Assembly (NCBI GenBank): GCA_013820875.1
Contig: JACDHS010000016.1
Location: forward strand, 1-51,689
Source: Verrucomicrobiota bacterium
Lineage (GTDB): Bacteria; Verrucomicrobiota; Verrucomicrobiia; Limisphaerales; JACDHS01
Direction of reading: 5' to 3'
Length of the DNA: 51,689 nt
Of this stretch, positions 29,981-51,689 are shown in pieces (within the stretch, counting starts at the first letter, position 1; every line of letters begins with the position of its first letter). The position numbers and the translations under genes are program-made. Below the pieces are notes generated by a model. It was given only the letters and a program-made list of their open reading frames with translations, was not told the DNA's origin and ran no database searches.

Positions 29981-29982
29981 AC

Positions 29983-30315: not shown

Positions 30316-30321
30316 ATAGAA

Positions 30322-30603: not shown

Positions 30604-30607
30604 AAAA

Positions 30608-31462
30608 TTATTTCTGTTTCATTGGGCGACCATCACGGCGCACCAGGATAAAGCGGTTACTATTCTTGGTCCTTATACGGGTCTTGTAACCCTTGGCCAA
30701 TAAGCCCCATGGCGATTTCAACTGGAGATGACCACCACCACCCTTGGATTTGCCCTGACCACCACCATTCGGATGATCAACAGGATTGCGGGCCACACCG
30801 CGGGTAATCGGGCGAATGCCACGATGACGACTACGACCGGCCTTGCCGAGAACTTCGTTTTCGTGCTCAATGTTACCCACCTGACCGATTGTGGCGTAGC
30901 ACTCTTCCTTCACTCGGCGAATTTCACCAGAAGGCAAACGAATCTGAGCATACCCGGCGTCACGTGACATCAATGTCGCCGCAGCACCAGCGCTGCGAAC
31001 CATCTGTCCACCACGTCCGGGAGTCAATTCAATGTTATGAATATGAATGCCCACCGGAATTGCGCTCAGCGGCAAACAATTCCCCAACTCCGCAGCCGCA
31101 CTCGGGCCGCTCATCAGTTTAACACCCACTTGAAGGCCGTTCGGCGCTACGATATAAGCCTTGCCCCCGTCCGTATATTGGAGGAGAGCCAAACGAGCCG
31201 TGCGAGTCGGATCATATTCGATCGCAGCTACAGTTGCTTCGACACCGTGCTTCTTACGTTTGAAATCTACGTTACGGATCTTTTGTTTGTGTCCGCCACC
31301 AATGCCGCGAGCTGTCACCCGGCCATAGGTATTGCGACCACCGGTTTTTTTCCGGGTCCGAACCAGGCTCTTCTCCGGCTTGGTCTTCGTAATTTCGTCA
31401 TAAGACGCTACTGTGATGTAGCGCAACGACGGCGTTAACGGTCTAAACGTTTTAACTGGCAT
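30608..31462 (-). CDS. rplB: 50S ribosomal protein uL2, first gene of the cluster
   Basis: 284 aa, starting [24 protein letters not shown] and containing [24 protein letters not shown]-like [20 protein letters not shown], and the PTC-proximal [22 protein letters not shown]. Essential for subunit joining and peptidyl transfer. A TTG three codons upstream is not used. In most bacteria rplC-rplD-rplW precede it; here it is first and has its own promoter candidate. Confidence 0.98.
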
Positions 31463-31594
31463 AAAAATCAATAAATCCGATTTCAGCTTGAAGTGCGCTG
31501 ACCATCACTCCTGCTCCGATGATCGGAGTTCAGTTATCGGTCAACAGCTATAAAAGCCGCCGCGTATCACCACTGCTGGTTCAACGGAGCGCGG
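31463..31594 (-). promoter_or_regulatory. rplB leader with a stem-loop
   Basis: About 125 nt of untranslated leader between the candidate promoter and rplB. It contains a CTCCG/CGGAG hairpin (31514-31528) flanked by complementary TGACC/GGTCA segments (31499 and about 31550). This could be a site for autogenous control by a ribosomal protein of the cluster; no match to a known leader family can be made by eye. Confidence 0.35.
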
Positions 31595-33929: not shown

Positions 33930-34312
33930 AGGTGGCCGAGGGTTTCAACCGGTTTCAACCCACGGATCAGGAAGCAGTTGCCGATCCCAGTCGCGGAGTG
34001 ACGCCCCGCATTGTAGCCGTGCGCGGAACGCTGGATTTATCCAGGATTTATCCGGCAGCAATCTCCCAAACCTAACGCTGACTCCAGAACCACCTGGCGC
34101 ATTCGGGACAGATTCACGTTCCTGCCGGATGAATCCGGCGTTCCGTTTGCAATTTCAACTGAATCGTTCCGGCTATAGCGTTTACCAAAAGTCTTTCCGG
34201 ATAGGCACTTCAAGTTTCATCGGAAACGTCTGTCTTCCCGACGCCTTTCCGTTCGACCTACGCTGTCGGGGTAATCAACGCGGGCTGATCACAAACGCTT
34301 TTCTCGCAGAAA

Positions 34313-34431
34313 GGAAATGAGTCTCCTGACGTCGTCTGCTACCAGATTTTGATCCGTCGCCGACTGCGGCGCACGCTCGTGCGCGAGCATCTCTCTCTCG
34401 TAGCAGACGACGTGAGGAGGCTCTGATTATT
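34313..34431. mobile_element. Large imperfect inverted repeat, MITE- or REP-like
   Basis: Two 24-nt arms (34319-34342 and 34400-34423) are complementary at 22 of 24 positions, with GGAAAT/ATTTCC extending the pairing beyond a small bulge. The 57-nt loop contains a second GCGCACG/CGTGCGC hairpin. The element lies just after the stop of the second ankyrin gene and before the array region. No transposase is near. It could be a dispersed palindromic element and may also stop transcription of the toxin operon. Confidence 0.6.
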
Positions 34432-34440
34432 TCCGCGAGA

Positions 34441-35109
34441 TTACTCGCAAAACGTTAAAGCAATTCCGGATGCTGATTCAATACAACCATCGGCTTTGTC
34501 CAACTTCTCCACATGACCTTTCACAACGCCAATGCGCGAAATCACCACTTCGTAACCAATGGAACCGAAATCACCCCCTGGCCCCGATCCGATCATGGCT
34601 GGCGTCGCATCCGTGCGACGCCAGTTCGGCCGCAGACCATAGCCAAAATCAAAAACACCTCCTGTACGACTGCAATGCGGCAAAAACTGCGATCCCAATT
34701 GGGTTCGCGCAATCCCGTCGTACGAGTACAACCCAAGCCGGTTAACTACCTTTGGATTAGCATTCACTTTACTACCCGCCTCAAGGAGCAATCTAGCAAC
34801 TTCCACATGCTGAAATGCCACTGCATGGTGTAGGGCCGTCCATCCGCCTTCTTCACCCGGTGGAGACTCATCCTTTAAGCTGACTTTCGCTCCTGCTGTT
34901 AGTAGCGCCCGAACGACCTCAACGTGCCCGTTTCGTGCGGCATGCATTAGTGGAGTGACGTTCCACGGTAGATCACGATGGTCCAAAGCATTGATATTTG
35001 TTCCAATCGCAATAGCCGAAGCTACCGCATTTAATTTGCCACTTGCTGCTGCGTCGAGTAACGCGAGTTCAACGAGAGATGCCTGAGTATCTGGGCCGTA
35101 TTTAGCCAT
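34441..35109 (-). CDS. Ankyrin-repeat protein 2, putative immunity protein
   Basis: 222 aa without signal peptide. About three ankyrin repeats lie at residues 15-120: SLVELALLDAAASGKLNAV, WNVTPLMHAARNGHVEVVRALLTAGAKV, GGWTALHHAVAFQHVEVARLLLEAGSKV. The last 100 residues do not continue the repeat and show no known domain. Its start overlaps the stop of the previous ankyrin gene by 8 nt, so it is translationally coupled to it. Being third in a Rhs-toxin operon, it is probably a second immunity protein or a partner of the first (inference). Confidence 0.85.
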   Translation of the reverse strand: MAKYGPDTQASLVELALLDAAASGKLNAVASAIAIGTNINALDHRDLPWNVTPLMHAARNGHVEVVRALLTAGAKVSLKDESPPGEEGGWTALHHAVAFQHVEVARLLLEAGSKVNANPKVVNRLGLYSYDGIARTQLGSQFLPHCSRTGGVFDFGYGLRPNWRRTDATPAMIGSGPGGDFGSIGYEVVISRIGVVKGHVEKLDKADGCIESASGIALTFCE

Positions 35110-36259
35110 ACATCTGGTCGAACAATGCGATCAGTTCAGGGTTATTAGACTTTTGAACCCATTCCAGCGCAGAAACGCCCGAGTGATCTACATCCGATGG
35201 ATTTGCTCCAGCTTCAAGGAGCGCTCGAACGATCTGCTTGTATCCTCCCTTTAATGCTGTGTGAAGAGCAGTTTCATAGAAAGCTGACCTTGTCCCTTTT
35301 TGACGAACTCCGTCCACAAATGACGAAAATGATTTCCCTGTAGGATCCGCCCCAAAATCCAGCAATAGGTGAGACACTTCAACAAGACCAGCGCAGGCAG
35401 CAATTGAAAGGGGCGTTCGATTCCCCACCTGCTTATTGGGATCAGCTCCCGCCTGCAATAGCATTTGGATCATTTTAGTGAAATCGACTTGGGGAAAGAC
35501 CCGACCCTCAGCTTCCATTGCGGTTCGAAGAGATGTCATGGTATTCCAAGTCATATACCGTGTCATCGCCAGAGAAAGGGGAGTGTCCCCCTTCTCACAC
35601 AAAGCAAGCTCTGATGCCCCAGCAACATAATTCGGATCGCAGCCTGCCGCTAAAAGGAATCCTAGAATTTCCTCGTTCTCTTTATCTATTGCACAAAGCA
35701 AGGCGCTACCGACCGGTGAAGCACCTATTGCAGAAAATTTCTTAACAAGTTCGACATCCTGGTTGTGCGCCGCACATGTAAGAACGCTTGCACTCCGTCT
35801 GCTGACGGTTCGTGGATCTGCTCCTTTTTGTAGCAGTAATTCAACCAGCGGTCTATTCCTCCGGAATGTCGCTCTCAGAAGGGGTGTCCATTTTGCGTCC
35901 CCATCTACTTCGGAGGGTCCGATCGCATTTGGGTTTGCCCCGAGTTTCAACAGCAACTCGGCCGCCGAAAACTGATCAAAAGCTACCGCGCAATTTAAAG
36001 GGGTCCCATAATGCTTGCTGCATTCAAGTTCTGCACCATCGCTGATCAATCCCTCAATGACATCTAAAGATCCGAGTTGACTGGCCGCCTGAAGTAACGA
36101 GTGTGGATAATTATCAGGGTTTGAAGAAATCAAGCAGTTCACGGAGAAACCGCGTCGAAGCAAAAGTGCTCGCAGTCCCTGCCATTCGTCCCCTTTGATA
36201 TATTCGTAGACCTCACCGGAATCCGCTGCAGAAATTTCATATTTGCCACTCATACTCAT
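35102..36259 (-). CDS. Ankyrin-repeat protein 1, putative immunity protein
   Basis: 385 aa, cytoplasmic by its lack of a signal peptide. About nine ankyrin repeats, for example SLLQAASQLGSLDVIEGLISDGAEL, TPLNCAVAFDQFSAAELLLKLGANPN, TPLLRATFRRNRPLVELLLQKGADP, TPLSIAACAGLVEVSHLLLDFGADP, TALHTALKGGYKQIVRALLEAGANP. Ankyrin proteins are a recognised class of immunity proteins beside polymorphic toxins. The start ATG at 36259 overlaps the stop of the giant Rhs gene as ATGA, with no ribosome site of its own, so its synthesis depends on translation of the toxin gene. The expected job is to bind and block the C-terminal nuclease. Confidence 0.9.
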   Translation of the reverse strand: MSMSGKYEISAADSGEVYEYIKGDEWQGLRALLLRRGFSVNCLISSNPDNYPHSLLQAASQLGSLDVIEGLISDGAELECSKHYGTPLNCAVAFDQFSAAELLLKLGANPNAIGPSEVDGDAKWTPLLRATFRRNRPLVELLLQKGADPRTVSRRSASVLTCAAHNQDVELVKKFSAIGASPVGSALLCAIDKENEEILGFLLAAGCDPNYVAGASELALCEKGDTPLSLAMTRYMTWNTMTSLRTAMEAEGRVFPQVDFTKMIQMLLQAGADPNKQVGNRTPLSIAACAGLVEVSHLLLDFGADPTGKSFSSFVDGVRQKGTRSAFYETALHTALKGGYKQIVRALLEAGANPSDVDHSGVSALEWVQKSNNPELIALFDQMYG

Positions 36260-39200
36260 TTTCGAAAATAAACGATTACCGGAAAAACACCTTTCCTGAT
36301 CGCCTTGAACCCTAAATAGCGTTTCAATACATAATGCTGAGGTGCTCGAAGCCCTTTCAGGTTGTGCTTGCCCACTATAAACGCAGCAATATGAAGGTCT
36401 GTATGTCTCGTAGCATAATTGAGAATTGCATCAAGTTGCTTTCCTTGATGTCCTTTTACGTAGGCATTATAGAGAGTTTGCGTTGACGCCTTCACCTCAC
36501 CTACTATATGGGTCCGATGATGTGTGCCATTAGGACCCACTAGCCCATCTCCGATAATAAAATCTGGAGACAAATAGCCACGCCGTGGTCCTCTTGCATT
36601 GAGTCTCGGGTTTCTTCCCGTGCAATTACGACCAGCTCCAACAATGTCGCCCTTCTCGCTCATTCTCATTCTATAATGAAATTTATCGCCTACTCCTTGT
36701 GAATTAAATACGGCGCAAGCAGCCATATTGAAAGGTTTGTCGATAGTATTTCCAGTTTTCAATGAATCTTTTGCAAGATGATCCGTGATTTTGTCTATAT
36801 CGAACCCAGGAAACAGGATGTGCATTTGCTTAAATGCTGCCTCAGCGAACGTGTTGATTGCTCGTGACTTCACTTCAGCTGTTCCCACTACCCGAAGAAT
36901 CTGTAGTGTATACTGAATGGCCTGAGCTATATTCATCTCAATCACAGTAAACTCGCCAGTAGGGTCTCCGTATGTATACGGATTATTATTAGCAAAATGG
37001 TAGCTGTTAAACGCTTCTACATTTTCACTACCCGGCTCGTCTGGATCCCTGGTCAGAAACTTACCAGTTACCGAATCATATTCACGTGCCCTCACGTGGT
37101 ATAGACCACTTCCAGCTTCCAGCCATTGGCCATGAAAACGGAAATCACCGTCCACTCCGGAAGCAACTTGCGCATCGTGACCAGTCGTTCCCCGCTGGTT
37201 TCCGAAGCCATCGTATTGGAAAGCTGCCAAACTTGTGCCGCTTTGATTTGCCAAGTTTATTACTGAACCCATGGCATCTTCGAGATAAAACACCGGTTCA
37301 TCCATGTTTCCGGAACCATCCACCTCAAAACGCACCAAAGGGCGATGTCCCACGTGCACATAGCCAGCCAGCACATTACCAGAACCATCACTCACCAGGT
37401 GCGGTGAATCCAAGCCAGCGTCTAAGGTCGGACCTGTCACGAAGCGCCGTTCGGTTGTGCCTTGCACCGCTTTTACGCGTCTTCCTTCCGCGTCGTATTC
37501 GTACGTGGTGGTTTGGCTGTTCTTCGTGACAAACATCACCCTGTCGCTTGTGTCGTAACTCAATGTGAGGTCGTCCAAACCACGCTCGATGCCGATCATG
37601 CGTCCAAAGTCATCGAACTCGTAATCTTCATTTTGAGGGCCAGTGACTGCATCCAACTGGTATCCCGGTGCGTAGGATGAGACGAATTCCTGTGGGCTGC
37701 CTATCCCAACCGTGCGCGTGAGCACCCGGCGATTGCCCGCTTCATCGTAAACGTAGGTAATCTTCTCCTGGAGAGCATCAGAGGAATCAAAATAGCGCTC
37801 CTCTTCTAAGCGGTGGGATTCATCGTAGTCGAGTTCGACATAAGAATTGTCCTCCCGGGTAATCTTCGTTGGTTCACCCAAGCCGGAACGGACATAATGG
37901 AACGCCGAAATGACGGTTTCCGTTGTTCCATCCACTTTCTTATGCACGATGTGCCGCACGAAATTATCCGGATCGTTGCCGGGATCGTTCCCGGTCGCGT
38001 TCGGATCAATTCTGTAGTCGTAGGTCGTCACAACTCCATTCGGCAGGGTCCGTTTTTTCACGCGACCAAGCTTGTCATGTTCATACACGATTTCAGTCTG
38101 ATCAGGCAATTTCACCTTCCAGAGATTCCCGGCAAGATCATAAACATATTCGGTGGTGTATACCGCACCCGTCGCTGAGGCCTTGGATTTGATCTTATGG
38201 ATGCGTTCCAAACGGTCGAATTCATAAATCAAGGCTGAACCGGTCGAATGCGTGATCGTTTTCACCCGACGCGAGTTGACGTAATCACTATCATAAGTGG
38301 TCGTTCGGGTTTGGCCGTTCTGCGTCAGTTGCGTTGATACCAATTGGCCGTCCGGCGAGTAAGCAGTGGCAACTTCCTTCTCCGGAGTCCACGAACCGGA
38401 AACGGTGGGTGATGTATAGTGCTTGCGCTCCCGCTCGCGTCCGGCCGCGTCGTATCTGAAAGTGACTTTGTGCCGTTTCCCATTCGCCTCATGAAGTTGC
38501 GCGACAGGCAGGTGTTTCGCGCCATTTGGAATCAACCAACCTGTTTCTTCAGGGTGCGTTTCCGCGTTCACGCTGTCTTCTGATTCGAAGTAAACCTGTG
38601 TGACCGTTCCTGCCCCAGCATAGCTGGTGGCATTCTGGCGATCCTGATCGTCATATCCATAGGAGACCAGGATTTCAGGGGCGAGTGGGGTTGTTGCGCC
38701 AGGGATGGTGAGCGCCGGCCCTTCCACGGCAAGAAGATAACCATTATCTTCTGCTGTCTCGCCTGGATCTGTGTCGTATTTGAAGGTATAAGTGTTTCCG
38801 CCAAGATCGGTAGCAGTCTTAATCTGCCCCGATTCAGTATAGGTAAAAGTGCGAACGCGGCCTGATTGGTCTGTGATCGTTGCAGGATATTCCTCTGCTT
38901 CCTGTTCGGGACTGACGAGGCCTGCAAGGTAGGTTGTCTTCACGCTTCCTGCACAGCATGTGGTCGTCTCAATTGGCAAACCGAATGGTGAGAAGATTGT
39001 CGTGGAGGTGCGATCAAGAGGATCCACCGCCGAAGCTGAATTCGCCGTGTAGGTGTAAGTCCACGTTGCCGCTTCCTCATTCGGAAGAGTTTTTGTCACC
39101 GTCTCGATCTGGCCATCGGGATAGTAAGTGTACTCGGTGATTTCGCCCTCAGCATTGGTATGCTTCTTCAAACGTCCAACCGCGTCGTTCTCGCGAATGT

Positions 39201-42200
39201 CTTCACCGCCAGTCCGGATGTTTTTGACTGTCGTTTTCCGATTCTGATCATCGTAGATGTATTCCGTTTCTTCGCCTTGGGCATTGATCTCGCGCTTAAG
39301 TCGGCCCACTTCGTCGTAACGAAACTCCGGATTGCTGCCATCGGCAGTTTCCCAACCGGCTAATCGACCATTGTCATCGAAGTCACGTTTCAAACTGCCA
39401 ACGGTCGGACTGCTGACAGTGTTCCAATCGAGTTGCGACTCATGGCCGTAGCTGATGCTGACGCCATTGCCGTAATCTGCACCGGTTTCACGACCTTGAG
39501 GGTCATAATCGATTGTGGATGTAGCACCGTCCTGCACGAAGGTGGTCAAATTGCCATTATCGTCGTAACCACTCGTGATCGTCTTGCCCAACGAATCCGT
39601 CAGGCTTGTGGCGTCACCTTTTGCATCCAAAGTGACTGCCATGCTGCCAAACGCATCCGTCTCGACTGTGGTCTGCGTCCCGTTCGCGCCGCTCTGGTAT
39701 TCCCATGAACTGATGGTCACGGTGTCAGAGGCAGTGAACTTGATCAAAGATCCCGATTGCGCCGCCGCTGCATTCAGCACTTCAACCAGTTTGGCAATCG
39801 TTGTGTAGCCGTCGTTTATTTTGACGGTGATTGTCTTGGTAGCCGAATCGTAAGAGACGGAAGCTACGTTGTCCTCAGTTGTGATTGCAGGATCATCTTC
39901 GATTTCAATCGTAACGCCGTTGAAATCTGTTCCCGTCTCACTTGTCCCGAAAACCAGATTGTACTCTGGCATTTTGACGCCAGACGTCTCTGTCGTAGTC
40001 CCACCAGAGGTCGTTGCGCTGGTAATCGGGCGGATCAAACTGACAGTGTCACGAACCTTCACCGCCGTTGGTTTCAAGGAAAACGACCTATCCCCGGTCT
40101 CGACGAGCGGATGATACGTATTGATCTCGACTGCTCCCGAAGGAGAAATCGTTTCGGTCGGATTGCCGTATTGGTCAAAACGACTGGTCGTTGTACGCCC
40201 GGTTGGACTCGTAACTTGCACCGAACTCAATTGACTGAAATTATTGTCAAAATAAGTGAACACCGTGGTTGTTGTCAGTCCCTCCACGGTATCGACTCCT
40301 TCTTCGAGCATGGTAGTCACTGTCTCGATCCGCTGTTTTTGTTCGGAGAGTGTTGTATAACTGCGACGCGTCTCGTTGAGCCAGTGCAGCGTTTCACTTT
40401 CACCATCTACTTCGACTTTGTAACCGGTTGTCTTAGTTATTCTGCCCTCATTATCGTAAGAATGAACAATTCTACGCATCAGCGGGTCGGTGATAATCTC
40501 CTGGTTATTCGCAATATCATGCACATAAGTGGTCGTGTTGCCGGAAGCATCGGTAACCGAACTCAATCGGCCATCCTGATACGTATTCCGAGTCACAAAT
40601 TTACCGCGTGGGTCTTTGATACCGGTGATGAAGTTTGGATAGGCGGTGTTTGTGTAGAAATACTGGTTAGTCAGGTAATTTTCCGAAACGCGATTTACTA
40701 ACTTGTGAACATGCGTCAGTCTGCCGCTGAAATCATAATCGTATTTAATCAGCGCCGGACCATTTATATCCCCGTCGCCATCAAGGGAAGCCGGGTCAAA
40801 AACCGACTTGATTCGCCCGTAGTTATCTCGATCAAAAACAATCGTGCGAGTTGGATTTCCACTGCTATCTGCCTCCCAGATTTTGTCTGGAGCAATATGC
40901 GTAACATTTCCATCCGGATGCTCGATTCGGGTGAGCTTCGGTGGTCCCCAAGTTCGGACGGGAAACGTCGGAAACTGACTATAATTTTCTTCTGATCCCT
41001 GCACCACGGTATGCAGGCCTTGATCATCGCGAGTCAGGTAATACCCGATACCATCCTCGGTTGTGAGTTTGAAACCAGGGAAATCGAAACTTTCCACGGG
41101 CAAGCGAGGGTCACCTTCCTGCCAATACGGCGGATAGATGCCTCCGAGAATAACGTTCAATGTTGGAAGCACCACCGCCTCAGCAGAATTCAGCACTTCT
41201 AATGTGGCGTTGACGCCCGGCGGAGAAATGTATCTCGGGACATACCCGAATCCAAATTCGTCTCCCGGAGCTCTTACAAGGGTGAAAAGGAACGTGGAAC
41301 GCCTGCCATCTGGAAGCGTCAAGGTGACATTCCTGCCTCCGCCAACACGCATATTAAAGTATTTCTCTGCTGGATCGTCTTCCGTGATATCCAGGACCGT
41401 TTCCCGGAATTCATCCAGTTCCACGTCCATGCTATTGATTGCAAAACTCCATGAATAGCCGAAGTCGCCTTTGTTGGGGTTGAGCGAATCGTAGGTGCGT
41501 ATGACCGTCAGCGGCATGCCACGAGCGGGAATCACGGCGTCCTGTTCACTGAACGTGAACTGCCCAACCTTCAGGTCGCTTTCCAGGATGAATCGCACGG
41601 AATCTTCGGCATATTCATTTTCCCCTTCTACAAACAGCCAGAGATCGTAAACGCCATTGCGGAGTCGGCTCAAATCAAACGTGCCGAGAGTATCATTTGT
41701 AACACCTGCTCCGCCAGAATACCAGAGCACTTCCTCTCCCTGGATCGTAGAAATCACGAGGTCGTATGTGACAGACTCACCAGCAACTGAACTGTGTGCA
41801 TTGCCCGTAACAATCAAAACTCCTTCGCTAATGCGGGGATAATTGGCAGCGATGCCACCCGCCGAGTAATTGGCCTGTGGCGGGTTAATGATTTTAGCAA
41901 TTGGAACTACTCCACTGCCAGAGGCGACAACGATATTGTTTGTCGCTTCAGTGAGACCGCCTTTATGCACCACTTGACCGTTTGCGTTGTTCGTGTAATC
42001 AGCCACCCAGCACGTGAATAAGTCTGGTCCGGTATAGCCGCTGTCCGGGGAGTAAAGCAATTTACCATTCTTCTCTACAACCTGGCCATGGAGAGGCTGG
42101 GTAAAAGAAAAGATCTCCAGCAGGTCACCTGGATCATCGCTGGCGTTTAACAGCAGATCGAACATCTCATTGGTTCGGGAATTCCGCTTCACCTCAATTG

Positions 42201-45200
42201 AATCCGGCAAGCTGATGATCGGAGCGTTGTTGTCTGAAGGAACGACAAATACAGTCACCTTGCCGCTGGCTGTATTACCCTGGTTGTCCACAATCGAATA
42301 GGTGAATTCATCAATTCCTGTAAAACCTGATGCGGGTGATGTGTACTTGACATGGTGACTATAGGAATGATCAACCTCGCCTCCATGCAATGCCGGGGTA
42401 ACGTTTGTTACGGTAGTGCCTCGGCAGTCATCACTCGGGACCACTTGTATCCAGATCGTGTTCGTAATCACAATCGGCCCCAGGGTGCTGGCAGGAACAC
42501 TCACAACCTTGTCTTGCGCGACCAACGGCCCATCGAAGCAGGGGTTGTAAAGATTAAGTGTGACATGAGCGGAACTGTTGCTGCCATATTCATCAACCAT
42601 TTTATATTCAAATTCGTCCTGCCCCACAGCACTGGCATCGGTCATATATTCCAATCGGAGCGGAGGACAGAATTGGTTTGTGAAATCCACCCCCCAGCTA
42701 ACATATCCCAGGCTTGCGGCCACCGACCCTCCCGGTGTTTCTTCCAGGGACACCCAGTCTCCAGCGGTGCGAACATGGGTCACTCGTAATGGTTTGAGGC
42801 CCGCGTTCATATCGTTGGCAAGCACGTCCAAAATGACTCTCTGAATACCGCTTGCTGTCATTATTACTGGAACCGCATTAGTATCGTTGACGGCTAACGT
42901 CACTCCCCCTGTTCTCGAAACCTCCACTTTCACCCGAGCCCGGGCAATGCCGCCAGCGGAGTTAGCCGCCATATAGGTAAAGCTATCTGTGCCAAGAAAG
43001 AACGGGCGAGGAGAATATTGGAGGTTTGTACGACTCTCACTGATCACCACCCATCCGTTCTGCGGTTGCGATACGTTTCTAATTGTGAGACTTGGATCAT
43101 TTTCATCATTTTTCAATACATCCAGAACTACTCCCGTACTGTTTCGTTGTATTGACGCCTGTCCCGCTTCTGGAAAACTGTCGTCCACCAGTGCAGGCGG
43201 TTTCGCTTCGGCCAAGGCACCCGGAAAGGTGCCTGCTGCATACGTGTTGTTTGCCTCGACCGTAATATCTGTAAGGATTGGGTATATAACCGAGCCACTT
43301 CGACGCAATGTAACCTGGAGCTCGATATAGCGACCAGAGAGTGGTTCGCCTGTGAAATGATCAAGAGGCTGTTGCCCGTTGCTGACGAGATTGAAAAGAT
43401 TGGTGGAAAGGCCGGTGATTGTTTCTGCAGTTCTAGCTTTAACAACGATTCCCTCATCCACCGCCCCTGATTCGTTATTCCATCTCACTTTACTCCACTC
43501 AGTTCCATGTACACCATCGTCATGAACAACACTCCAAACACCCATCCCGGGAGAACTCTCCAAAGCGACAGTTCCAGTCATGTTAAAGTTGCCCAAATAA
43601 TAAGCCGCATGTTGTCCTCCATAAAGAATTACACTCATATCAACTTCACCAACGTGAGATGCATTTGTATAAAGTGAGTGTGTCGGCTCGAGCACAAGCT
43701 CGTTAATCATTCTTGGTCCTTTTGTGGGATCAATCCGTAGCAAATCACCATACCCATAACCGGAACTCGCCTGAGTCATCAGCCAGACCTTGCCATTTGA
43801 ATCTATAGAAAGCTCCACTGGCCAAAAGTCACAGGGCAATGGCACACGCCCGACGTACGACGTATTAGAATCATTGTTTTCGATAACGAAACGGAACAAT
43901 TTACGAGCATCCGAATTCGTGTCCCATGCTATCAGCCAAACGTTGCCCTCAGCATCAATTCTCATCCTTGACGAATAGAAAGTAATGGGTACGGACATCC
44001 CTTGAGTCTCGGCTATCACGCCAGTTTCGCTGATTTTGCTGAGGTAAACCAAACCGTCACGGTCGTACATGGACCAAACATTCCCAGTCCTGGGATCCAT
44101 AGCAGCAGTTCCCTGTTCGAACTCCAACTTCTCTATACAATTCGCTAAAAGAGTATCACCATCAAAACCGGATATCATGAGTGCTGATGCTGGTGCCTCT
44201 GTCAAAGTCCAAAACGAACGGTTCCGGTTCAAGAAATTCAAACCCGCCTCCTGCCTAATCCGCTCGCAGGGCGTAACATTGGTCACCTGAATTCCTGTGT
44301 TTCCATTTATCACCCTCAATTCATTAGTGAGGCCGGAAATTCCCAACCAAAGGTTATCGCCTGGATCAACCGTCACACTGAATCCTGCCCACGCGCCCGA
44401 GTATGGGAGGACAGGAAACCAGTCGAGAATAGCTTCGTCCTCCGCTTCAGTAACGTCGATTGGCCCATCCGCTGTTTTTCTCTTCCAAGGCAACAGATGC
44501 CCGGATCCGCGCGAGGTTTTGATATAGCCATCACGATCTCGATCAATGCATGTGTTGTACAGGAACGGTGGCTTAAGGTAGTCACCATTCAAGTCAGCGG
44601 TAAAGCTGCCGTCGGGATTTTTATGTCCGCGCGTGCCTCCGATGACGACGCCAATCTTGCAGATCCCGGAAGCACGTAACTGAAACCCGCTTATGCCAAC
44701 AAAAGAATTTCCATATTTGTCTACAGTCATTCCTAATTCTACATAATCGTGAGCCATGCCTTCCCATCTTAAATCCGGGTGCCCAGGAGCAACGCTATAC
44801 TCGCCAACGCACTCGCCCGTATTCACATCAATTCTAGCCAAGACACTCTCACCAATGTGACCGTTCGATCGCCATAGTCTTGTATTCACAAACGGAAACG
44901 GCGTCGCCAGATAATTTATTTGAAGCTGGTTGGTGGTAACCTCATAATTTAGGTTCATGAGTGTTCCCTGATCGAAATCTATATTGGTGGTGTAAGTTCG
45001 AGCTTTCGTAACTGTGATGGTAACTTCTCCGAACTTACTCTGACCGAGATCGTCGGTTCCTGTTGCCCGGAACTTGTATTCGCCCGGTGCAGTCAAAATT
45101 GCCGAAACATTTGGGGATTCATCGGACGGAGAAAAAGAGACACTCACGTCGCCCGGACTTTTAGTCGTGCTCCATTTAAATTCAACCTCTCCGATCCCGT

Positions 45201-48200
45201 TCGAATGAGTCGCAAACAGGTTTACTGCCAATGGTAAAACTTCGACCGTCGGATTTAGAGACTGTCCTTCAGCGAGGGAGGCCTGGACCGAAAACTCATC
45301 CAAAGTCAAGATCTCAATTACAAACGTGCTGCTAGACTCATCGATACCGCCGTTGGCAGTTCCATCCTGGTCTCTGACGGTAACGGTGACGGTGACGTTT
45401 CTTTCTGTAGCGCCGGGCGTGAATGAGATGGATCCGGTTGTCGCAGACGGGCTGTAGATGATTTGAGGAGTGCCGCCGATAGCAAAGGCATCTTCATCTT
45501 CCGGGCTGATGCTGACTTGAACACTTAACGGCCATCCCGTTTCGTTCTCCGGTCCGCCGGTAATGCCAGAAAGAGAAACCACCTGGGATGGGCCACCGGC
45601 ATAGACAGTCGGGACATCACCGATGTACAGAGTGGGCGCGTCGTTGACAGGGACAACATGGACGGTGGTCGTCACACTGGTCGATCCACCGCTTCCGTCT
45701 GACAAACTGATTGCTACCGTCCGTGGGTTGGATGATGGATTCTCGGATAAATTGTGAAAACTGACACTGCGCAAGACAGCTTGTGCAGCGGCCAATGAGC
45801 ATTCGGAATCGAAGATGACCTGCAAAGAGTGATTTCCAACAGCGCTCAATGTCCCGACTGGCACCCCTTGATAATTTACAACATTACCTGCCATCGTTAT
45901 TTCGTTATTCGCAGACATTCCCAATCGATCCGCAGCCTGGCTGTTCTGGGTAATAGATGCAGTCAATGTCCCTCCCGCAAAATTGGGAGAATCGGCGTCT
46001 GTGAGGGTGGAAGCGGGGTCAAGAAACTTCGATGCTTGATTCTCGATATAGGTGCTCGTGGCAGCGAATTGCATTTCGGGCGCCACGCCGCCCCGGCACA
46101 GTTTATTAACAATCTTCTCAAAAACCAACCGCAACGAGTCGATTTTGGCACTTTGGGTGGAGCCAGAAGCAAAATAGGCGTCCAAAGGAGATGTGGCCGC
46201 CATACGAAGCAACTGCTCATTGTTGGTACCAAATCCAATGATGATGATTTTGATTCCCGTTTCCTTGGCTTGATTGATTATTTCCCTCGTGCTCGGGGTA
46301 GGCTTCCACGCCCCATCCGACATCAGCACGACCACACGCTGCCGATTGGTTACGGTAATTTCTGAATTCAATTCAAACTGCGCAATGGCGGCGCTCAATG
46401 CATTGTCCGCACAGGAATATCCTCCCTCAGTGAGACCTGCCACTCGCGTGTATTGATGAAGAAAAATATTTGTCTGTAGCAGCGCGTTACGAACTGCCTC
46501 AAGGTCACCCGTTAACTCTTTAGCAACAGCGGCCTGCCCCTCGAAAAAGATGGCAGAGAGGCGGTCCTGAGTCGCGAATTTTGCAGCAAAATCAGCCGAA
46601 CATTTTCTCGATGGAGCACCATAACCGCTAGCCGAGTTGGAGAAATCGATTGCCACTACCAGGTCAATCGCATCCGGACAGTTGGGGCTAAGAACCTGAA
46701 GTTCTTTCGAAAACAGAAGGTGGTTACTTGTGCCAGCAGTCCAACTGACATTGATCCTGCGCCCATTCTGGAGGAATTGTGGTGAAAGGTGATTGTAGGT
46801 AAGGCGTTCAACCACATCTTCAATACTGTTGCTGGTGATGTTGCTCAGGTTTGTGTCAAATGCAATCACCAGAGCGGTTCCCTGACCATCATAAGTTCCC
46901 TGCACCGAGCCAATGTGAATTGCGTTATTTCCGGTAAAGACCTTGTCGTCATTAAACACGGTGGTTTTCGTCGTATTTTCAATCGAAAGGCGATCTTCCG
47001 GATAATACAGAGGATCACCCATGGCATCGACAATTTCCACTTTGAGTGTTCCATCATTATAGTTGAAGGCGGTCAGTTCAACATCAGGCGCTACATAGAC
47101 TGACGGGTATGTTGAGACTCCCTCCAGCAGCGGAAAAATCACTTGTCCCCGCGTAAAGGCAAACGGTCTTGAATCGCCGACTGCTAATGCTCCGTCGAAA
47201 TAGGAAACGGAGTAGTTGGTCTTTTGATCTGCAGTAATAATTCGGTGAATTGGATCATTGAGACTAATTGTTGAGCCGCGTTCGATCAAATAGTACCCAG
47301 AACCGCCGGTTTCCGGCGCACTACTCACGTATATTGCAGGATTATTATCATTGATTCCTTCGATCCCAACCCCGAACTCGCCGCGATGCATGGCATTCTC
47401 TCTCGCAAAACCGTTGATGATTCCCGTAAAGGCAGGATTTGCAGCACCTGCCGCTCTGACTCGATTCTTCGCCTTTGCCGTCAGTGTCGCTTTGAGAATA
47501 GTTAGATTACCATTTGTAAAGTTTTCTTCCTGAAAACTGTATGTTTTGGATGTCAGCGCGCTGTCATCGGTCGGTTTCGTTACCCGGATCTCATAATTTC
47601 CAACGTCACTGCCGGTCGTGGCATCGGTGCTAAAGATGGGAGATCCGGAAATGGTGGCTGGTCCGTCTCCATTGACGAAGCCCTCATATCGCGCTGTAAA
47701 GATTGCGTTGGGAGTTCCATAGGCCCGGATAAAATCGTTACCTATGACCGTAAGAGGCTTTTTAGAGACATCGAAAGATTGCGACACCGGAGATGCAGAA
47801 AGATACAACGAGTTTCCGTTTTGCCGCGCTTCAACCGTGACAGTCCCCATTCCGGTAACAGTGATTTGATTTCCGGATACAGTAGCATTCTTCACAGTTG
47901 TGGCGCCGGGTTTGATTGAAGTCACAACGAATGTGACAGGCAACCCGGACGATGCCGTCGCAGAGACCTCAAACGTATCGCCGTAAACCTTGTCAGGTAT
48001 AGGGGTATCGAAAGCGATGGTTTGTGACGCCTTGCTAATGGTGTAGCTCTGATCTGTTGTTGCCGGATTATAAACTGCATCACCGGAATGAAATCCCCTG
48101 ACTTTTACGGTTCCAACGCCAGTAGAAGTAACCACATTATCTGCGACGACTCCCGGTCCGGAGATGACAAAGAAATTAACCGGTCCTTCAGTAGAAGTTG

Positions 48201-51200
48201 CCGATGCTATCGGAGTGAACGAAGCACCGTACGTGGAAGTGAATGGTTCAGTGAACGTTATTGCCTGAGTAAGTTTAGAACTCGATGTAACCTGAAAAAG
48301 ACGGTCCATGTCGGCGGCGGCGTTAAAGTTGTCATTTCCAGCTTGAGACGCGCGCACCCAAACGCTACCTGTATTGTTGATCACCGCATTTGTACCGACG
48401 ATTGTCGTTCCATCCGGAGCAAAAATTAACGCAAAGGTTATTGGCAATCCGGACGATGCAGATGACTTGAGAGGAACAATCAAATCGGAACTCCCCAGGA
48501 TTTGGTTGCTGACGGCAGTAAATGTTATCGACTGATTTGCTTTGGTGGCCTCAAACGTTTGGTCTTCTGCTTGAGCAGCATACACTACCGTCTCCGCTGT
48601 TGACGCGCGCACAGTGGTGAAACCTGCACCGGTAATTGTCAGCACATTGTTGGTGACTGTAGCAAGGCCCGAAACAATATCGAAAATGACTGGCAGCCCC
48701 GCCGAAGAAACGGCACTGAGGCCGAAGGCTGGATTTCCATAGACCTTACCGCTGATCGTGGCAAACGTTATGGTCGAATTTAATCTGGCAACCGCCAAAG
48801 TCGCAGACTCACTCGTCACTTCCCCCGAGGCATTGCTGATTGTCACAGTATAGCCCGCCTCATCGGTTACCGTCACTCCTGTTATGGTCAGAGTGGAGGT
48901 GCTTGAACCAGAAACACCGTTGTCATCCACCAGGTTCACACCATTCTTTTTCCAGGCGAATGAAAGAGGCAAACCTCCGTCTGCACCGACTGAAAATGTT
49001 ACAGTTACGCCTGCGTTTACCGATTGGCTAACGGGTTGCACCAGTATAGAAGGAGAATCGCCCACCCAAAGGTTCGCAGGATTACTCAGTTGCGAACCGC
49101 GTTCGTTCGTCACCAAAACTGTATAATCAGCCGCATCCGAAACCTGCACGTTATTCAAATCAAGAGATGACGCGATGGCACCATCGAGCGCAATGCCGTC
49201 CTTATACCATTGATATGACAATAGGTTGCCGGTCGCCACCACAACGAACGTGGCATTAGCGCCTGCGTTTTGCACCTGACTGACAGGATGTGTGATGATT
49301 GTCGGCCCATCCAAATACTCGATTTTGATATCATCGAACCATCCAACTTCGCTGTCGCCAACCCCGGCGCCATATGAGCCCATGGCGACGGTGTCCCAGG
49401 TGGCGTTGTTTACTCCGGTAATGGTGCGGCCGAGTTTGCCGTCCACGTAGAATTTCACGGTCGAGCCGTCGGTTGATTTCTCGAGGTGGAACTTGTGCCA
49501 ACCGATGCTGCGATAAGAGGCTCCGGCTGTATTCAAGTTGAACCAACCTGTGTTTTGTCCGGCAAAGACTCGACCTTGATAATAAGCAGTTTGGAGTTGT
49601 TCATTCTCTAGAGTTCCTGTGTTGGCATCAAATGGAGTAAGGTAGTTTCCGATCGCGAGAATCTGTTGAAGGCTTCCCTGGCCGAATCCGTTCCCGCTAA
49701 ACGCGCGAACTTCGCCGAAGGCTCGTTCCTGGTCGTTGGTGCCTGCATCATAAATCCAGAAGGTAGCCCGGGCGCTCCCCTGCACTTCGACTCCGAGGTC
49801 GTGATACATCTTATCGAGCGAGTTTGTTTGTTGTGCTGTTTTTGACCCGCTGACAGGGTTATTTTGGGTGCTGGAAATCGTCAACGCGGTTCCGCCTGAG
49901 ACCGTTGTCCAGTTGCTGAGATTTCCAGCTTCGAAATCTTCGAAGAAAATCAGGCCTGCGTTAATGGAGAGAATGGCTTTGGCAGATATTGAACCAGCGA
50001 GATTTGAAACGATCACCGTGTATTCTGCTGCATCATCTTCCGTGACATTGCTAAGAATGAGATGGTCCGAATCTGAACCAGCGATGTTACCGTCGTCCGT
50101 TAGAGTGACTCCATTCTTCTTCCACAGATAGGTGAATGGGGGCGTTCCACTGACTACTGCGTGGAATGTGACTTCGCTGCCCGGGTTCGCTACCTGGTTG
50201 GCTGGCGCTGTAACAAACACGGGCGGATCAATGACCGTCAAAATTGCGACCGTACTGATCACCGAACCAACGCCATTGGCAACCACCACAGTGTATTCTC
50301 CGGAATTCGAGCCGGTAACGTTTTGCGATACCAGTGAAGAACTTGTTGCCCCGGAAATATTGATCCCATCTTTTCGCCATTGGTAGCTCGTGACATTATT
50401 GATCGCCGTCACTGTAAAGTTGACGGTGGCTCCAGCATTGACGGTCTTGCTGACAGGCTGGGTGGTGATAACAGGCACACCGAAATATTCGGCGTTGATG
50501 TCGTCAAACCAGGCGTCGCCTGCTGTTGTCCCGGCGGCTGCGGAACCAATCGTAACGGCATCCCATTTGGCGGCGGTCGCACTTGTAATGCTGCGTCCAA
50601 GGATGCCGTCCACGTAGAAGTTAATGGTGGTCCCGTTCGCCATGCGTTCGATTTCGAACTTGTGCCAACCAGTGGAACGTGCCGGCACCCCTGAATTGTT
50701 CAAATTGAACCATCCCGCATTGCTCCCCGCGTAAACGCGTCCTTGATACTTGGTGGTATCAACCACTTCACTGGCCAGGTCGCCGGTTCCTGTTCCAAAA
50801 CCGACGCTGTAACGTCCGATGGCCAAAATCTGTTGAAGACTACCCTGCCCGTAGCCCGCTCCTGAATATGCCCGTACTTCACCAAAAGCCCTGGTTTGCG
50901 TGCTGTCATAGATCCAAAAGGTCACTTTTGAATAGCCATCCACCTCTGCGCCGAGATTTCGATACATCCGGTTGTTGCTGCTTCCCACCTTCGCAGCATT
51001 GGTTCCACTGGGGGTATGGTTTTGAGTGCTGGAATTGGTTAATGCACTGGAAATGGTAGTCCAATTGCCCAGGCCCGTTTCGAATGTCTCGATCCACGGA
51101 CTATGGGATTGCATCGAAAGGAGGGCATCCGAGCTGATGACCGCTCCGGCGGCATTGCTGACAATGACTGAATAAACTCCGACATCCAGCGATTGGATAT

Positions 51201-51689
51201 TGGTCCGCGTGTGGCTGCTCGTTGTCGCACCAGAGATGCTCAGTCCATTGCGCCTCCATTGGTAGCCCAGTATTCCGGAACCGATTGCCTCGACCGAAAA
51301 AGTCGCTGAATCACCGGCGTTTACCGTCTGACTTTCCGGCTGGGTCAAAATCAACGGTGCGCCGGTCGGATTACCAATGGATGAACCACTGATGCCGCTC
51401 CACATATTGGGCGTGTGCAAATCCGCCCGCCAGAAGCTCACTCCTTTATAGCCACCGATGGATGCTGAGTTCGAATTCGTCTTCAAACGGTTTACGAATT
51501 CTGCAATCTCCGCTCCCGTAAGGATGTTGGTGCTGCTTGGACTCCATCCCTGGGCAATTGGCGCAATCGGTTTGATAGCAGCGGTATTCGATCCTGTTAG
51601 TGAGTTCTGCCAATTACTCCATTGAGTATCCAATTGATGCACCATGTTCGAAGGGGAAATACCAAAGCTCTTCCAGTAGCACTGCGGCA
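36256..51689 (-). CDS. Giant Rhs/YD-repeat surface protein with C-terminal PD-(D/E)xK nuclease tip (5' end outside window)
   Basis: More than 5,140 codons; the frame stays open to the window edge, so the N-terminus is missing. Residue numbers count from an internal Met at 51645. Layout: end of a TIM-barrel/glycosidase-like domain (1-85); Ig-like (96-182); LamG-like (183-389); two Ig (390-563); LamG-like copy (564-776); two Ig (777-952); MBG-like repeats (953-1490); vWA with MIDAS D1667-F-S1669-N-S1671 (about 1655-1852); cadherin-like (to about 2215); seven-blade-type propeller (about 2215-2797); further cadherin/Big-like modules; Rhs/YD repeats (about 3356-4899) ending in the core motif NNNPYTYGDPTGEF. 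The last 230 residues (4900-5129) are a separate domain with D5028 in SPDFIIG, E5050-V-K5052 and Q5070, a restriction-endonuclease-type nuclease signature. Two overlapping ankyrin genes follow. Likely a contact-dependent polymorphic toxin. Confidence 0.9.
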   Translation of the reverse strand, partial: PQCYWKSFGISPSNMVHQLDTQWSNWQNSLTGSNTAAIKPIAPIAQGWSPSSTNILTGAEIAEFVNRLKTNSNSASIGGYKGVSFWRADLHTPNMWSGISGSSIGNPTGAPLILTQPESQTVNAGDSATFSVEAIGSGILGYQWRRNGLSISGATTSSHTRTNIQSLDVGVYSVIVSNAAGAVISSDALLSMQSHSPWIETFETGLGNWTTISSALTNSSTQNHTPSGTNAAKVGSSNNRMYRNLGAEVDGYSKVTFWIYDSTQTRAFGEVRAYSGAGYGQGSLQQILAIGRYSVGFGTGTGDLASEVVDTTKYQGRVYAGSNAGWFNLNNSGVPARSTGWHKFEIERMANGTTINFYVDGILGRSITSATAAKWDAVTIGSAAAGTTAGDAWFDDINAEYFGVPVITTQPVSKTVNAGATVNFTVTAINNVTSYQWRKDGINISGATSSSLVSQNVTGSNSGEYTVVVANGVGSVISTVAILTVIDPPVFVTAPANQVANPGSEVTFHAVVSGTPPFTYLWKKNGVTLTDDGNIAGSDSDHLILSNVTEDDAAEYTVIVSNLAGSISAKAILSINAGLIFFEDFEAGNLSNWTTVSGGTALTISSTQNNPVSGSKTAQQTNSLDKMYHDLGVEVQGSARATFWIYDAGTNDQERAFGEVRAFSGNGFGQGSLQQILAIGNYLTPFDANTGTLENEQLQTAYYQGRVFAGQNTGWFNLNTAGASYRSIGWHKFHLEKSTDGSTVKFYVDGKLGRTITGVNNATWDTVAMGSYGAGVGDSEVGWFDDIKIEYLDGPTIITHPVSQVQNAGANATFVVVATGNLLSYQWYKDGIALDGAIASSLDLNNVQVSDAADYTVLVTNERGSQLSNPANLWVGDSPSILVQPVSQSVNAGVTVTFSVGADGGLPLSFAWKKNGVNLVDDNGVSGSSTSTLTITGVTVTDEAGYTVTISNASGEVTSESATLAVARLNSTITFATISGKVYGNPAFGLSAVSSAGLPVIFDIVSGLATVTNNVLTITGAGFTTVRASTAETVVYAAQAEDQTFEATKANQSITFTAVSNQILGSSDLIVPLKSSASSGLPITFALIFAPDGTTIVGTNAVINNTGSVWVRASQAGNDNFNAAADMDRLFQVTSSSKLTQAITFTEPFTSTYGASFTPIASATSTEGPVNFFVISGPGVVADNVVTSTGVGTVKVRGFHSGDAVYNPATTDQSYTISKASQTIAFDTPIPDKVYGDTFEVSATASSGLPVTFVVTSIKPGATTVKNATVSGNQITVTGMGTVTVEARQNGNSLYLSASPVSQSFDVSKKPLTVIGNDFIRAYGTPNAIFTARYEGFVNGDGPATISGSPIFSTDATTGSDVGNYEIRVTKPTDDSALTSKTYSFQEENFTNGNLTILKATLTAKAKNRVRAAGAANPAFTGIINGFARENAMHRGEFGVGIEGINDNNPAIYVSSAPETGGSGYYLIERGSTISLNDPIHRIITADQKTNYSVSYFDGALAVGDSRPFAFTRGQVIFPLLEGVSTYPSVYVAPDVELTAFNYNDGTLKVEIVDAMGDPLYYPEDRLSIENTTKTTVFNDDKVFTGNNAIHIGSVQGTYDGQGTALVIAFDTNLSNITSNSIEDVVERLTYNHLSPQFLQNGRRINVSWTAGTSNHLLFSKELQVLSPNCPDAIDLVVAIDFSNSASGYGAPSRKCSADFAAKFATQDRLSAIFFEGQAAVAKELTGDLEAVRNALLQTNIFLHQYTRVAGLTEGGYSCADNALSAAIAQFELNSEITVTNRQRVVVLMSDGAWKPTPSTREIINQAKETGIKIIIIGFGTNNEQLLRMAATSPLDAYFASGSTQSAKIDSLRLVFEKIVNKLCRGGVAPEMQFAATSTYIENQASKFLDPASTLTDADSPNFAGGTLTASITQNSQAADRLGMSANNEITMAGNVVNYQGVPVGTLSAVGNHSLQVIFDSECSLAAAQAVLRSVSFHNLSENPSSNPRTVAISLSDGSGGSTSVTTTVHVVPVNDAPTLYIGDVPTVYAGGPSQVVSLSGITGGPENETGWPLSVQVSISPEDEDAFAIGGTPQIIYSPSATTGSISFTPGATERNVTVTVTVRDQDGTANGGIDESSSTFVIEILTLDEFSVQASLAEGQSLNPTVEVLPLAVNLFATHSNGIGEVEFKWSTTKSPGDVSVSFSPSDESPNVSAILTAPGEYKFRATGTDDLGQSKFGEVTITVTKARTYTTNIDFDQGTLMNLNYEVTTNQLQINYLATPFPFVNTRLWRSNGHIGESVLARIDVNTGECVGEYSVAPGHPDLRWEGMAHDYVELGMTVDKYGNSFVGISGFQLRASGICKIGVVIGGTRGHKNPDGSFTADLNGDYLKPPFLYNTCIDRDRDGYIKTSRGSGHLLPWKRKTADGPIDVTEAEDEAILDWFPVLPYSGAWAGFSVTVDPGDNLWLGISGLTNELRVINGNTGIQVTNVTPCERIRQEAGLNFLNRNRSFWTLTEAPASALMISGFDGDTLLANCIEKLEFEQGTAAMDPRTGNVWSMYDRDGLVYLSKISETGVIAETQGMSVPITFYSSRMRIDAEGNVWLIAWDTNSDARKLFRFVIENNDSNTSYVGRVPLPCDFWPVELSIDSNGKVWLMTQASSGYGYGDLLRIDPTKGPRMINELVLEPTHSLYTNASHVGEVDMSVILYGGQHAAYYLGNFNMTGTVALESSPGMGVWSVVHDDGVHGTEWSKVRWNNESGAVDEGIVVKARTAETITGLSTNLFNLVSNGQQPLDHFTGEPLSGRYIELQVTLRRSGSVIYPILTDITVEANNTYAAGTFPGALAEAKPPALVDDSFPEAGQASIQRNSTGVVLDVLKNDENDPSLTIRNVSQPQNGWVVISESRTNLQYSPRPFFLGTDSFTYMAANSAGGIARARVKVEVSRTGGVTLAVNDTNAVPVIMTASGIQRVILDVLANDMNAGLKPLRVTHVRTAGDWVSLEETPGGSVAASLGYVSWGVDFTNQFCPPLRLEYMTDASAVGQDEFEYKMVDEYGSNSSAHVTLNLYNPCFDGPLVAQDKVVSVPASTLGPIVITNTIWIQVVPSDDCRGTTVTNVTPALHGGEVDHSYSHHVKYTSPASGFTGIDEFTYSIVDNQGNTASGKVTVFVVPSDNNAPIISLPDSIEVKRNSRTNEMFDLLLNASDDPGDLLEIFSFTQPLHGQVVEKNGKLLYSPDSGYTGPDLFTCWVADYTNNANGQVVHKGGLTEATNNIVVASGSGVVPIAKIINPPQANYSAGGIAANYPRISEGVLIVTGNAHSSVAGESVTYDLVISTIQGEEVLWYSGGAGVTNDTLGTFDLSRLRNGVYDLWLFVEGENEYAEDSVRFILESDLKVGQFTFSEQDAVIPARGMPLTVIRTYDSLNPNKGDFGYSWSFAINSMDVELDEFRETVLDITEDDPAEKYFNMRVGGGRNVTLTLPDGRRSTFLFTLVRAPGDEFGFGYVPRYISPPGVNATLEVLNSAEAVVLPTLNVILGGIYPPYWQEGDPRLPVESFDFPGFKLTTEDGIGYYLTRDDQGLHTVVQGSEENYSQFPTFPVRTWGPPKLTRIEHPDGNVTHIAPDKIWEADSSGNPTRTIVFDRDNYGRIKSVFDPASLDGDGDINGPALIKYDYDFSGRLTHVHKLVNRVSENYLTNQYFYTNTAYPNFITGIKDPRGKFVTRNTYQDGRLSSVTDASGNTTTYVHDIANNQEIITDPLMRRIVHSYDNEGRITKTTGYKVEVDGESETLHWLNETRRSYTTLSEQKQRIETVTTMLEEGVDTVEGLTTTTVFTYFDNNFSQLSSVQVTSPTGRTTTSRFDQYGNPTETISPSGAVEINTYHPLVETGDRSFSLKPTAVKVRDTVSLIRPITSATTSGGTTTETSGVKMPEYNLVFGTSETGTDFNGVTIEIEDDPAITTEDNVASVSYDSATKTITVKINDGYTTIAKLVEVLNAAAAQSGSLIKFTASDTVTISSWEYQSGANGTQTTVETDAFGSMAVTLDAKGDATSLTDSLGKTITSGYDDNGNLTTFVQDGATSTIDYDPQGRETGADYGNGVSISYGHESQLDWNTVSSPTVGSLKRDFDDNGRLAGWETADGSNPEFRYDEVGRLKREINAQGEETEYIYDDQNRKTTVKNIRTGGEDIRENDAVGRLKKHTNAEGEITEYTYYPDGQIETVTKTLPNEEAATWTYTYTANSASAVDPLDRTSTTIFSPFGLPIETTTCCAGSVKTTYLAGLVSPEQEAEEYPATITDQSGRVRTFTYTESGQIKTATDLGGNTYTFKYDTDPGETAEDNGYLLAVEGPALTIPGATTPLAPEILVSYGYDDQDRQNATSYAGAGTVTQVYFESEDSVNAETHPEETGWLIPNGAKHLPVAQLHEANGKRHKVTFRYDAAGRERERKHYTSPTVSGSWTPEKEVATAYSPDGQLVSTQLTQNGQTRTTTYDSDYVNSRRVKTITHSTGSALIYEFDRLERIHKIKSKASATGAVYTTEYVYDLAGNLWKVKLPDQTEIVYEHDKLGRVKKRTLPNGVVTTYDYRIDPNATGNDPGNDPDNFVRHIVHKKVDGTTETVISAFHYVRSGLGEPTKITREDNSYVELDYDESHRLEEERYFDSSDALQEKITYVYDEAGNRRVLTRTVGIGSPQEFVSSYAPGYQLDAVTGPQNEDYEFDDFGRMIGIERGLDDLTLSYDTSDRVMFVTKNSQTTTYEYDAEGRRVKAVQGTTERRFVTGPTLDAGLDSPHLVSDGSGNVLAGYVHVGHRPLVRFEVDGSGNMDEPVFYLEDAMGSVINLANQSGTSLAAFQYDGFGNQRGTTGHDAQVASGVDGDFRFHGQWLEAGSGLYHVRAREYDSVTGKFLTRDPDEPGSENVEAFNSYHFANNNPYTYGDPTGEFTVIEMNIAQAIQYTLQILRVVGTAEVKSRAINTFAEAAFKQMHILFPGFDIDKITDHLAKDSLKTGNTIDKPFNMAACAVFNSQGVGDKFHYRMRMSEKGDIVGAGRNCTGRNPRLNARGPRRGYLSPDFIIGDGLVGPNGTHHRTHIVGEVKASTQTLYNAYVKGHQGKQLDAILNYATRHTDLHIAAFIVGKHNLKGLRAPQHYVLKRYLGFKAIRKGVFPVIVYFRK

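What the first reader, a model, noticed from the sequence alone, without database searches (positions are those of the whole stretch)
34441..51689. Giant Ig/vWA/Rhs toxin with PD-(D/E)xK nuclease tip and two coupled ankyrin immunity genes
Seen: an Rhs core ending in DPTGEF, then a 230-aa unrelated tip with SPD5028-x21-E5050-V-K5052 and a downstream Gln, and two ankyrin genes overlapping by 4 nt and 8 nt. Known: polymorphic toxins place a variable toxin after the Rhs core, and their immunity gene follows directly; ankyrin proteins are a known immunity class. Inferred: this is an antibacterial nuclease with ankyrin immunity in an unusual, very large adhesin-like carrier that joins vWA, propeller and Ig/LamG modules to Rhs. 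No secretion genes are in the window.
Basis: partly seen in the sequence, partly recalled or inferred. Interest (0 to 1): 0.85.

Follow-up and report, generated by a model that had tools for sequence, protein, structure and literature searches.

The report
Rhs nuclease toxin with ankyrin antidotes
This is a very large bacterial surface or secreted protein whose tail end looks like an undescribed DNA/RNA-cutting toxin, followed at once by two ankyrin genes that are probably its antidotes; the same toxin-antidote pairing recurs in distant cyanobacteria, so it is a new toxin family of a known kind.

Summary
The Rhs protein ends in a 230-aa tip with D5028-x21-E5050-x-K5052 and Q5070, followed by two ankyrin genes overlapping by 4 and 8 nt. 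One correction: the carrier is not a complete 5129-aa protein. It runs off the contig end and its N-terminus is missing.

The tip matches no Pfam, NCBIfam or PHROGs family. It has about 25 relatives, all found in Cyanobacteria at 17-34% identity, nearly all at the end of Rhs cores. Across 22 tips K is invariant, Q is invariant where covered, the first D is 21/22 and the [D/E] of [DE]xK is 21/22. A 4-sequence AlphaFold model (pLDDT 75) has REase-like strand/helix order; Foldseek hits are PD-(D/E)xK nucleases, but weak (E>=0.05).

Fifteen of 24 cyanobacterial tips have an ankyrin gene within 350 nt downstream, against 2 of about 44 other Rhs tips there (Fisher p about 3e-7). Non-ankyrin cases carry WD40, pentapeptide-repeat or unnamed genes in the same slot. 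Rhs carriers, REase tips and ankyrin immunity are each known, and a Tox-REase-7/ankyrin pair was already proposed. New: the tip family and its varied immunity slot.

The parts
36256..51689 (-). Giant Rhs carrier gene (at least 5143 aa), N-terminus missing because it runs off the contig end
   Evidence: 5'-open ORF; domains by Pfam/NCBIfam; contig C209 is 51689 bases long
50002..50226 (-). Ig domain, best of five Ig stretches in the N-terminal third
   Evidence: Pfam Ig_3, E 6e-50 for the slice
46165..46428 (-). von Willebrand factor A-like domain (matched part)
   Evidence: Pfam VWA, E 2e-7
42925..43200 (-). Bacterial Ig / tandem-95 cadherin-like repeat (best of four)
   Evidence: Pfam Big_9, E 8e-35 for the slice
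41446..41574 (-). DUF6531 (matched part), just before the Rhs repeats
   Evidence: Pfam E 6e-7
36955..37215 (-). Rhs repeat-associated core ending in DPTGEF
   Evidence: TIGR03696, E 8e-16
36805..36966 (-). Junction and helical pre-toxin linker at the start of the tip
   Evidence: conserved across family alignment
36259..36804 (-). Putative PD-(D/E)xK nuclease toxin domain, residues 4948-5129
   Evidence: family conservation; AlphaFold model pLDDT 74.6, pTM 0.75
36562..36564 (-). D5028 of PDF motif
   Evidence: D in 21 of 22 family members, E in one
36490..36498 (-). E5050-V-K5052 ([DE]xK motif)
   Evidence: K in 22 of 22; D or E in 21 of 22
36436..36438 (-). Q5070 in the helix after the core strands
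   Evidence: Q in 21 of 22, one truncated
35102..36259 (-). Ankyrin protein 1 (385 aa), probable immunity protein, overlaps the toxin gene by 4 nt
   Evidence: Pfam Ank_2 E 1e-35; neighbour conservation
34441..35109 (-). Ankyrin protein 2 (222 aa; last ~100 aa not ankyrin-like), probable second immunity protein, overlaps ankyrin 1 by 8 nt
   Evidence: Pfam Ank_2 E 4e-18, residues 17-118 only

Best explanation
The region encodes one polymorphic toxin module. A giant secreted or surface protein (Ig, vWA and cadherin-like stalk plus an Rhs shell) presents a C-terminal nuclease domain of the PD-(D/E)xK superfamily. On contact with related cells the tip would be released and cut nucleic acid in the target, using D5028, E5050 and K5052 to hold the metal ion and Q5070 as a supporting residue. 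Ankyrin protein 1, and probably ankyrin protein 2, are likely made from the same transcript and bind the tip to protect the producer and its kin. Shown here: gene layout, family, conserved residues, statistical coupling of tip and ankyrin gene, REase-like model topology. Inferred: nuclease activity, target, delivery, and immunity by binding.
For: Tip relatives found by protein search in plasmids of Gloeothece and Oscillatoria (E 1e-12 and 4e-10), in Calothrix and Phormidium and in 16 of 391 genomes of a cyanobacterial order, nearly all on Rhs proteins. K invariant and D, [DE], Q nearly invariant over 22 tips. AlphaFold model with helix-strand order of the REase fold; top PDB neighbours Hef/XPF/Mus81 nucleases and a CdiA-CT/CdiI complex. 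Ankyrin gene within 350 nt downstream in 15 of 24 tips against 2 of about 44 other Rhs tips in the same 16 genomes, Fisher p 3e-7. Tandem modules of Rhs fragment-tip-ankyrin three times in a row in one genome (L054), the usual look of orphan toxin/immunity cassettes. Other Rhs tips in these genomes are known toxins (EndoU, NucA/NucB, RNase A, PT-HINT, Ntox34). In the window's own genome only three ORFs carry ankyrin repeats by Pfam Ank_2, and two of them are these.
Against: No sequence library names the tip and no Foldseek hit is significant (best E 0.05 in PDB, 0.02 in viral models; TM scores about 0.3-0.4). The model rests on four sequences. Nine of 24 relatives lack a close ankyrin gene, including Gloeothece with no same-strand neighbour within about 1.3 kb. 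The window's tip is only 17-34% identical to its relatives and no relative was found in its own phylum. No delivery system or N-terminus could be examined.
Confidence: 0.8

Rival explanations
1. The tip is a toxin with another enzymatic fold, and the D-[DE]xK-Q pattern is a coincidence of conserved residues. The ankyrin genes are still its immunity genes.
For: No significant fold match; CD38-like NAD-hydrolase structures also appear among the weak PDB hits.
Against: The catalytic positions are among the best conserved outside the junction and fall in the expected order on model strands and helix.
Confidence: 0.1
2. The ankyrin genes are not antidotes but partners of another kind (chaperone, surface or signalling proteins) that happen to travel with this Rhs tip.
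For: Ankyrin proteins have many roles; the two window ankyrins differ in length and repeat number, and ankyrin 2 has a non-ankyrin tail.
Against: Coupling is to this tip and not to other Rhs tips in the same genomes; the gene sits in the immunity slot with 4-nt overlap; in relatives the slot is filled by quite different proteins (WD40, pentapeptide), which fits antidotes better than a chaperone.
Confidence: 0.1
3. The module is a decayed or silent remnant: carrier broken at the contig end, second ankyrin gene eroded by repeats.
For: The 5' end is unseen; dispersed repeats begin at the very end of ankyrin 2 and fill the spacer.
Against: 5143 codons stay open without a stop, catalytic residues are intact, and both overlaps are preserved.
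Confidence: 0.07

Closest known systems
Tox-REase-7 (PF15649) with ankyrin neighbours, Campylobacter jejuni T6SS region (PMC8285248)
   Same: Restriction-endonuclease-fold toxin next to an ankyrin gene proposed as immunity; Tox-REase-7 motif list GxxxE, IxD, ExK, Q (PMC3482391) resembles the tip's GxxxE, PDF, [DE]xK, Q
   Different: No member of the tip family matches PF15649 even at E 10; carrier is a giant Rhs protein, not a T6SS-linked effector; most members have DxK rather than ExK
Rhs/YD polymorphic toxins with REase tips (Tox-REase-1 to -10, PMC3482391)
   Same: Rhs core, variable C-terminal nuclease tip, immunity gene directly downstream, orphan cassettes
   Different: The tip is in none of the clades modelled in Pfam/NCBIfam; in that paper the Imm-Ank row of the immunity table lists only Tox-AHH
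Tle6 phospholipase with ankyrin immunity protein Tli (PMC11470151)
   Same: Ankyrin-repeat immunity protein bound directly to its toxin, shown by a solved structure
   Different: Toxin is a lipase delivered by T6SS, not a nuclease on an Rhs carrier
PoNe/PoNi DNase effector pair (PMC6688995)
   Same: PD-(D/E)xK polymorphic nuclease toxin with adjacent immunity gene
   Different: Immunity and tip are of other families; no Pfam match links them here

Membership tests
Rhs polymorphic toxin system | RHS/YD repeats and Rhs-associated core directly before the tip | tested here: met
   PF05593 nine stretches, TIGR03696 E 8e-16
Rhs polymorphic toxin system | Variable tips on similar cores and orphan tip/immunity cassettes | tested here: met
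   In Cyanobacteria: similar cores with EndoU, NucA, RNase A, HINT tips and tandem cassettes. In the window's own class only distantly related Rhs cores (26-37% identity), none with this tip
Rhs polymorphic toxin system | Immunity gene immediately downstream | tested here: met
   Position and conservation met; neutralising activity not testable here
Rhs polymorphic toxin system | Secretion or export signal | not testable with these tools
   N-terminus beyond the contig end
PD-(D/E)xK nuclease superfamily | Conserved D, [DE]xK and supporting Q | tested here: met
   D 21/22; D or E 21/22 with K 22/22; Q 21/22 with one truncated
PD-(D/E)xK nuclease superfamily | REase core topology | tested here: inconclusive
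   Secondary-structure order fits; Foldseek hits of the right kind but E >= 0.05 in PDB
PD-(D/E)xK nuclease superfamily | Catalytic residues cluster in space | not testable with these tools
   Model coordinates not available
Tox-REase-7 (PF15649) | Match to the family profile | tested here: not met
   No hit for any of 21 tips at E up to 10
Imm-Ank immunity proteins | Ankyrin repeats, gene adjacent to toxin tip | tested here: met
Imm-Ank immunity proteins | Neutralises the cognate toxin | not testable with these tools
   Needs an experiment

The most novel reading that the evidence does not exclude
One undescribed nuclease-toxin family whose antidote slot is filled, in different genomes, by unrelated kinds of repeat proteins (ankyrin, sometimes in series of up to six genes; WD40 propeller; pentapeptide helix), so that immunity has been reinvented or swapped several times against the same toxin fold.
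Probability: 0.4. Interest if true: 0.65.

Novelty: new member of a known kind. Interest (0 to 1): 0.52.

Why it matters
If true, it adds a family of nuclease toxins that none of the profile libraries searched here names, spread across Cyanobacteria and one distant lineage, with a clear and easily tested antidote pairing. The variety of repeat proteins in the antidote slot would make it a good case for asking how immunity to one toxin fold evolves and is exchanged.

Tried and rejected
Single-sequence AlphaFold of the tip was useless (pLDDT 34); a 4-sequence alignment of the core did better. Searches of phages, viral contigs and PDB sequences with the tip gave nothing real. Marginal hits to the tip in the window's phylum (E about 0.009 in G281, G210, G1324) were dropped as partial and low-scoring. 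The motif alone was rejected as evidence because a loose form occurs in 44% of shuffles. Two Rhs ends (G969:C3:67833, G880:C23:17100) were counted as family by the script; I moved both to the controls by judgement (the first plainly carries another tail behind a similar linker; the second did not appear in the E<=0.001 tip searches), giving 15/24 against 2/44; without that step it is 15/26 against 2/42, p 1.5e-6. WD40 and pentapeptide genes in the slot (2 and 1 cases) are too few for a statistical claim.

Full report
What is there. On the minus strand a giant open frame (36256-51689) ends in an Rhs-associated core, the junction DPTGEF, and a 230-aa tip; two ankyrin genes follow with 4- and 8-nt overlaps. 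Pfam and NCBIfam confirm Ig domains, MBG_2, VWA, Big_9/cadherin-like domains, DUF6531, RHS repeats and the Rhs core. The frame is open at the contig edge, the window is the whole contig, and the frame continues upstream of the apparent start as PQCYWKSFGISPSN (read by eye), so the start at 51645 is probably internal and the protein longer than stated. LamG and propeller were not detected.

Relatives of the tip. The tip matches no Pfam, NCBIfam or PHROGs family. tblastn against plasmids found two real relatives, in Gloeothece (E 1e-12) and Oscillatoria (E 4e-10), both on Rhs-related proteins. An alignment led to Calothrix and Phormidium, then to 3 of 386 genomes of that phylum and 16 of 391 genomes of that order. 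In the window's own phylum only the window itself is convincing: 388 genomes with the single tip or a 3-sequence profile, and 181 genomes of its order with the 21-sequence profile. Identity to the window tip is 17-34%. The distribution suggests old or indirect horizontal transfer, but with so few members outside Cyanobacteria the direction is not known.

Nuclease evidence. Over 22 aligned tips, K5052 is invariant, D5028 is D in 21 and E in one, position 5050 is D or E in 21 (D in most, E in the window), Q5070 is invariant where covered, and an upstream GxxxE motif is also largely kept (D in place of E in the window). This is the classical D-[DE]xK plus Q of the REase fold. The motif by itself would not have been evidence. 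AlphaFold with four aligned sequences gave pLDDT 74.6 and pTM 0.75 for residues 4948-5129, with elements helix, helix, strands, helix, helix, strand, helix, strand; D5028 sits just before a strand, E5050 and K5052 at the end of the next, Q5070 in a following helix. Foldseek's best PDB hits are Hef, Mus81 and XPF nucleases and a CdiA-CT/CdiI complex, but at E 0.05 or worse; in the viral library a restriction endonuclease and ERCC4 nucleases appear, also weak. I take the fold as likely, not proven.

Immunity evidence. In 16 cyanobacterial genomes I compared what follows each Rhs core that was fetched. An ankyrin gene lies within 350 nt downstream on the same strand for 15 of 24 tips of this family (12 within 100 nt) and for 2 of about 44 other tips (Fisher p 3e-7; 15/26 against 2/42, p 1.5e-6, without my reassignment of two doubtful cases). 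At least one pair of the 24 is a near-duplicate (L054 and L057; their ankyrin genes are 98% identical), so the effective number is a little smaller. One of the two exceptions among the controls is an EndoU tip, the other a PT-HINT tail. Ankyrin genes come in series at several places: two or three at L052, again with an 8-nt overlap, and six at L060. The window's two fit that pattern. In its own genome only three ORFs bear ankyrin repeats by Pfam Ank_2, and two are these. Most cyanobacterial ankyrin neighbours are related to each other, commonly at about 30-47% identity.

When ankyrin is absent. Directly downstream of the other tips stand a pentapeptide-repeat protein (25 nt), two WD40 proteins (59 and 85 nt), an unnamed 205-215-aa family (two tips plus a tip fragment) and a 134-aa orphan; Gloeothece has nothing on the same strand nearby. 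This suggests that the slot is an antidote slot whose occupant varies. The numbers are small and this is a lead, not a result.

Carrier. In one cyanobacterium the carrier is 6440 aa with Big_13, DUF4114, He_PIG, Big_9 and RHS repeats, so the giant Ig-plus-Rhs carrier is shared in type, though not in detail. Other Rhs tips in the same genomes include known toxin domains.

Comparison with what is known. Rhs polymorphic toxins, ten REase toxin clades and ankyrin immunity (Imm-Ank, listed with Tox-AHH) are described in PMC3482391. A Tox-REase-7/ankyrin pair was proposed in Campylobacter (PMC8285248) and an ankyrin immunity protein bound to a lipase toxin has been solved (PMC11470151). The present case works like these. 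It is a member of the Rhs polymorphic toxin kind by every feature that could be tested; it is not a member of Tox-REase-7 by profile. The tip family itself appears undescribed in the libraries searched, and I found no paper on it in six full-text searches, which is not exhaustive.

Verdict. It is a new toxin family of a known kind with good comparative support; activity, delivery and immunity remain inferred.

Noticed in passing
L055:3284-4084, L052:4156-5394, L056:1685-2611: Pentapeptide-repeat and WD40 proteins occupy the slot directly after this tip where ankyrin is missing.
   Followed up: partly
L051:10041-10658, L053:3504-4151, L053:2115-2738: An unnamed 205-215-aa protein family sits directly after some tips and may be another antidote family.
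   Followed up: partly
L060:4112-9932: Six ankyrin genes in series behind one tip of this family.
   Followed up: no
window 33960-34482: The spacer behind ankyrin 2 is a mosaic of dispersed repeats: a ~128-bp element (about 34044-34174) in some two dozen copies in the genome, a ~60-bp element and a long hairpin (34302-34440).
   Followed up: partly
window 2140-6801: An RND (AcrB-type) pump fused in one frame to an outer-membrane efflux (OEP) domain, 1553 aa.
   Followed up: no
window 19083-31471: The toxin module lies beside a stretch with RpoA, SecY and ribosomal protein L2 genes on the same strand, so it is probably chromosomal and not a stray contig.
   Followed up: no
window 34441-34750: The C-terminal ~100 aa of ankyrin protein 2 are not ankyrin-like; the gene end may have been replaced.
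   Followed up: partly
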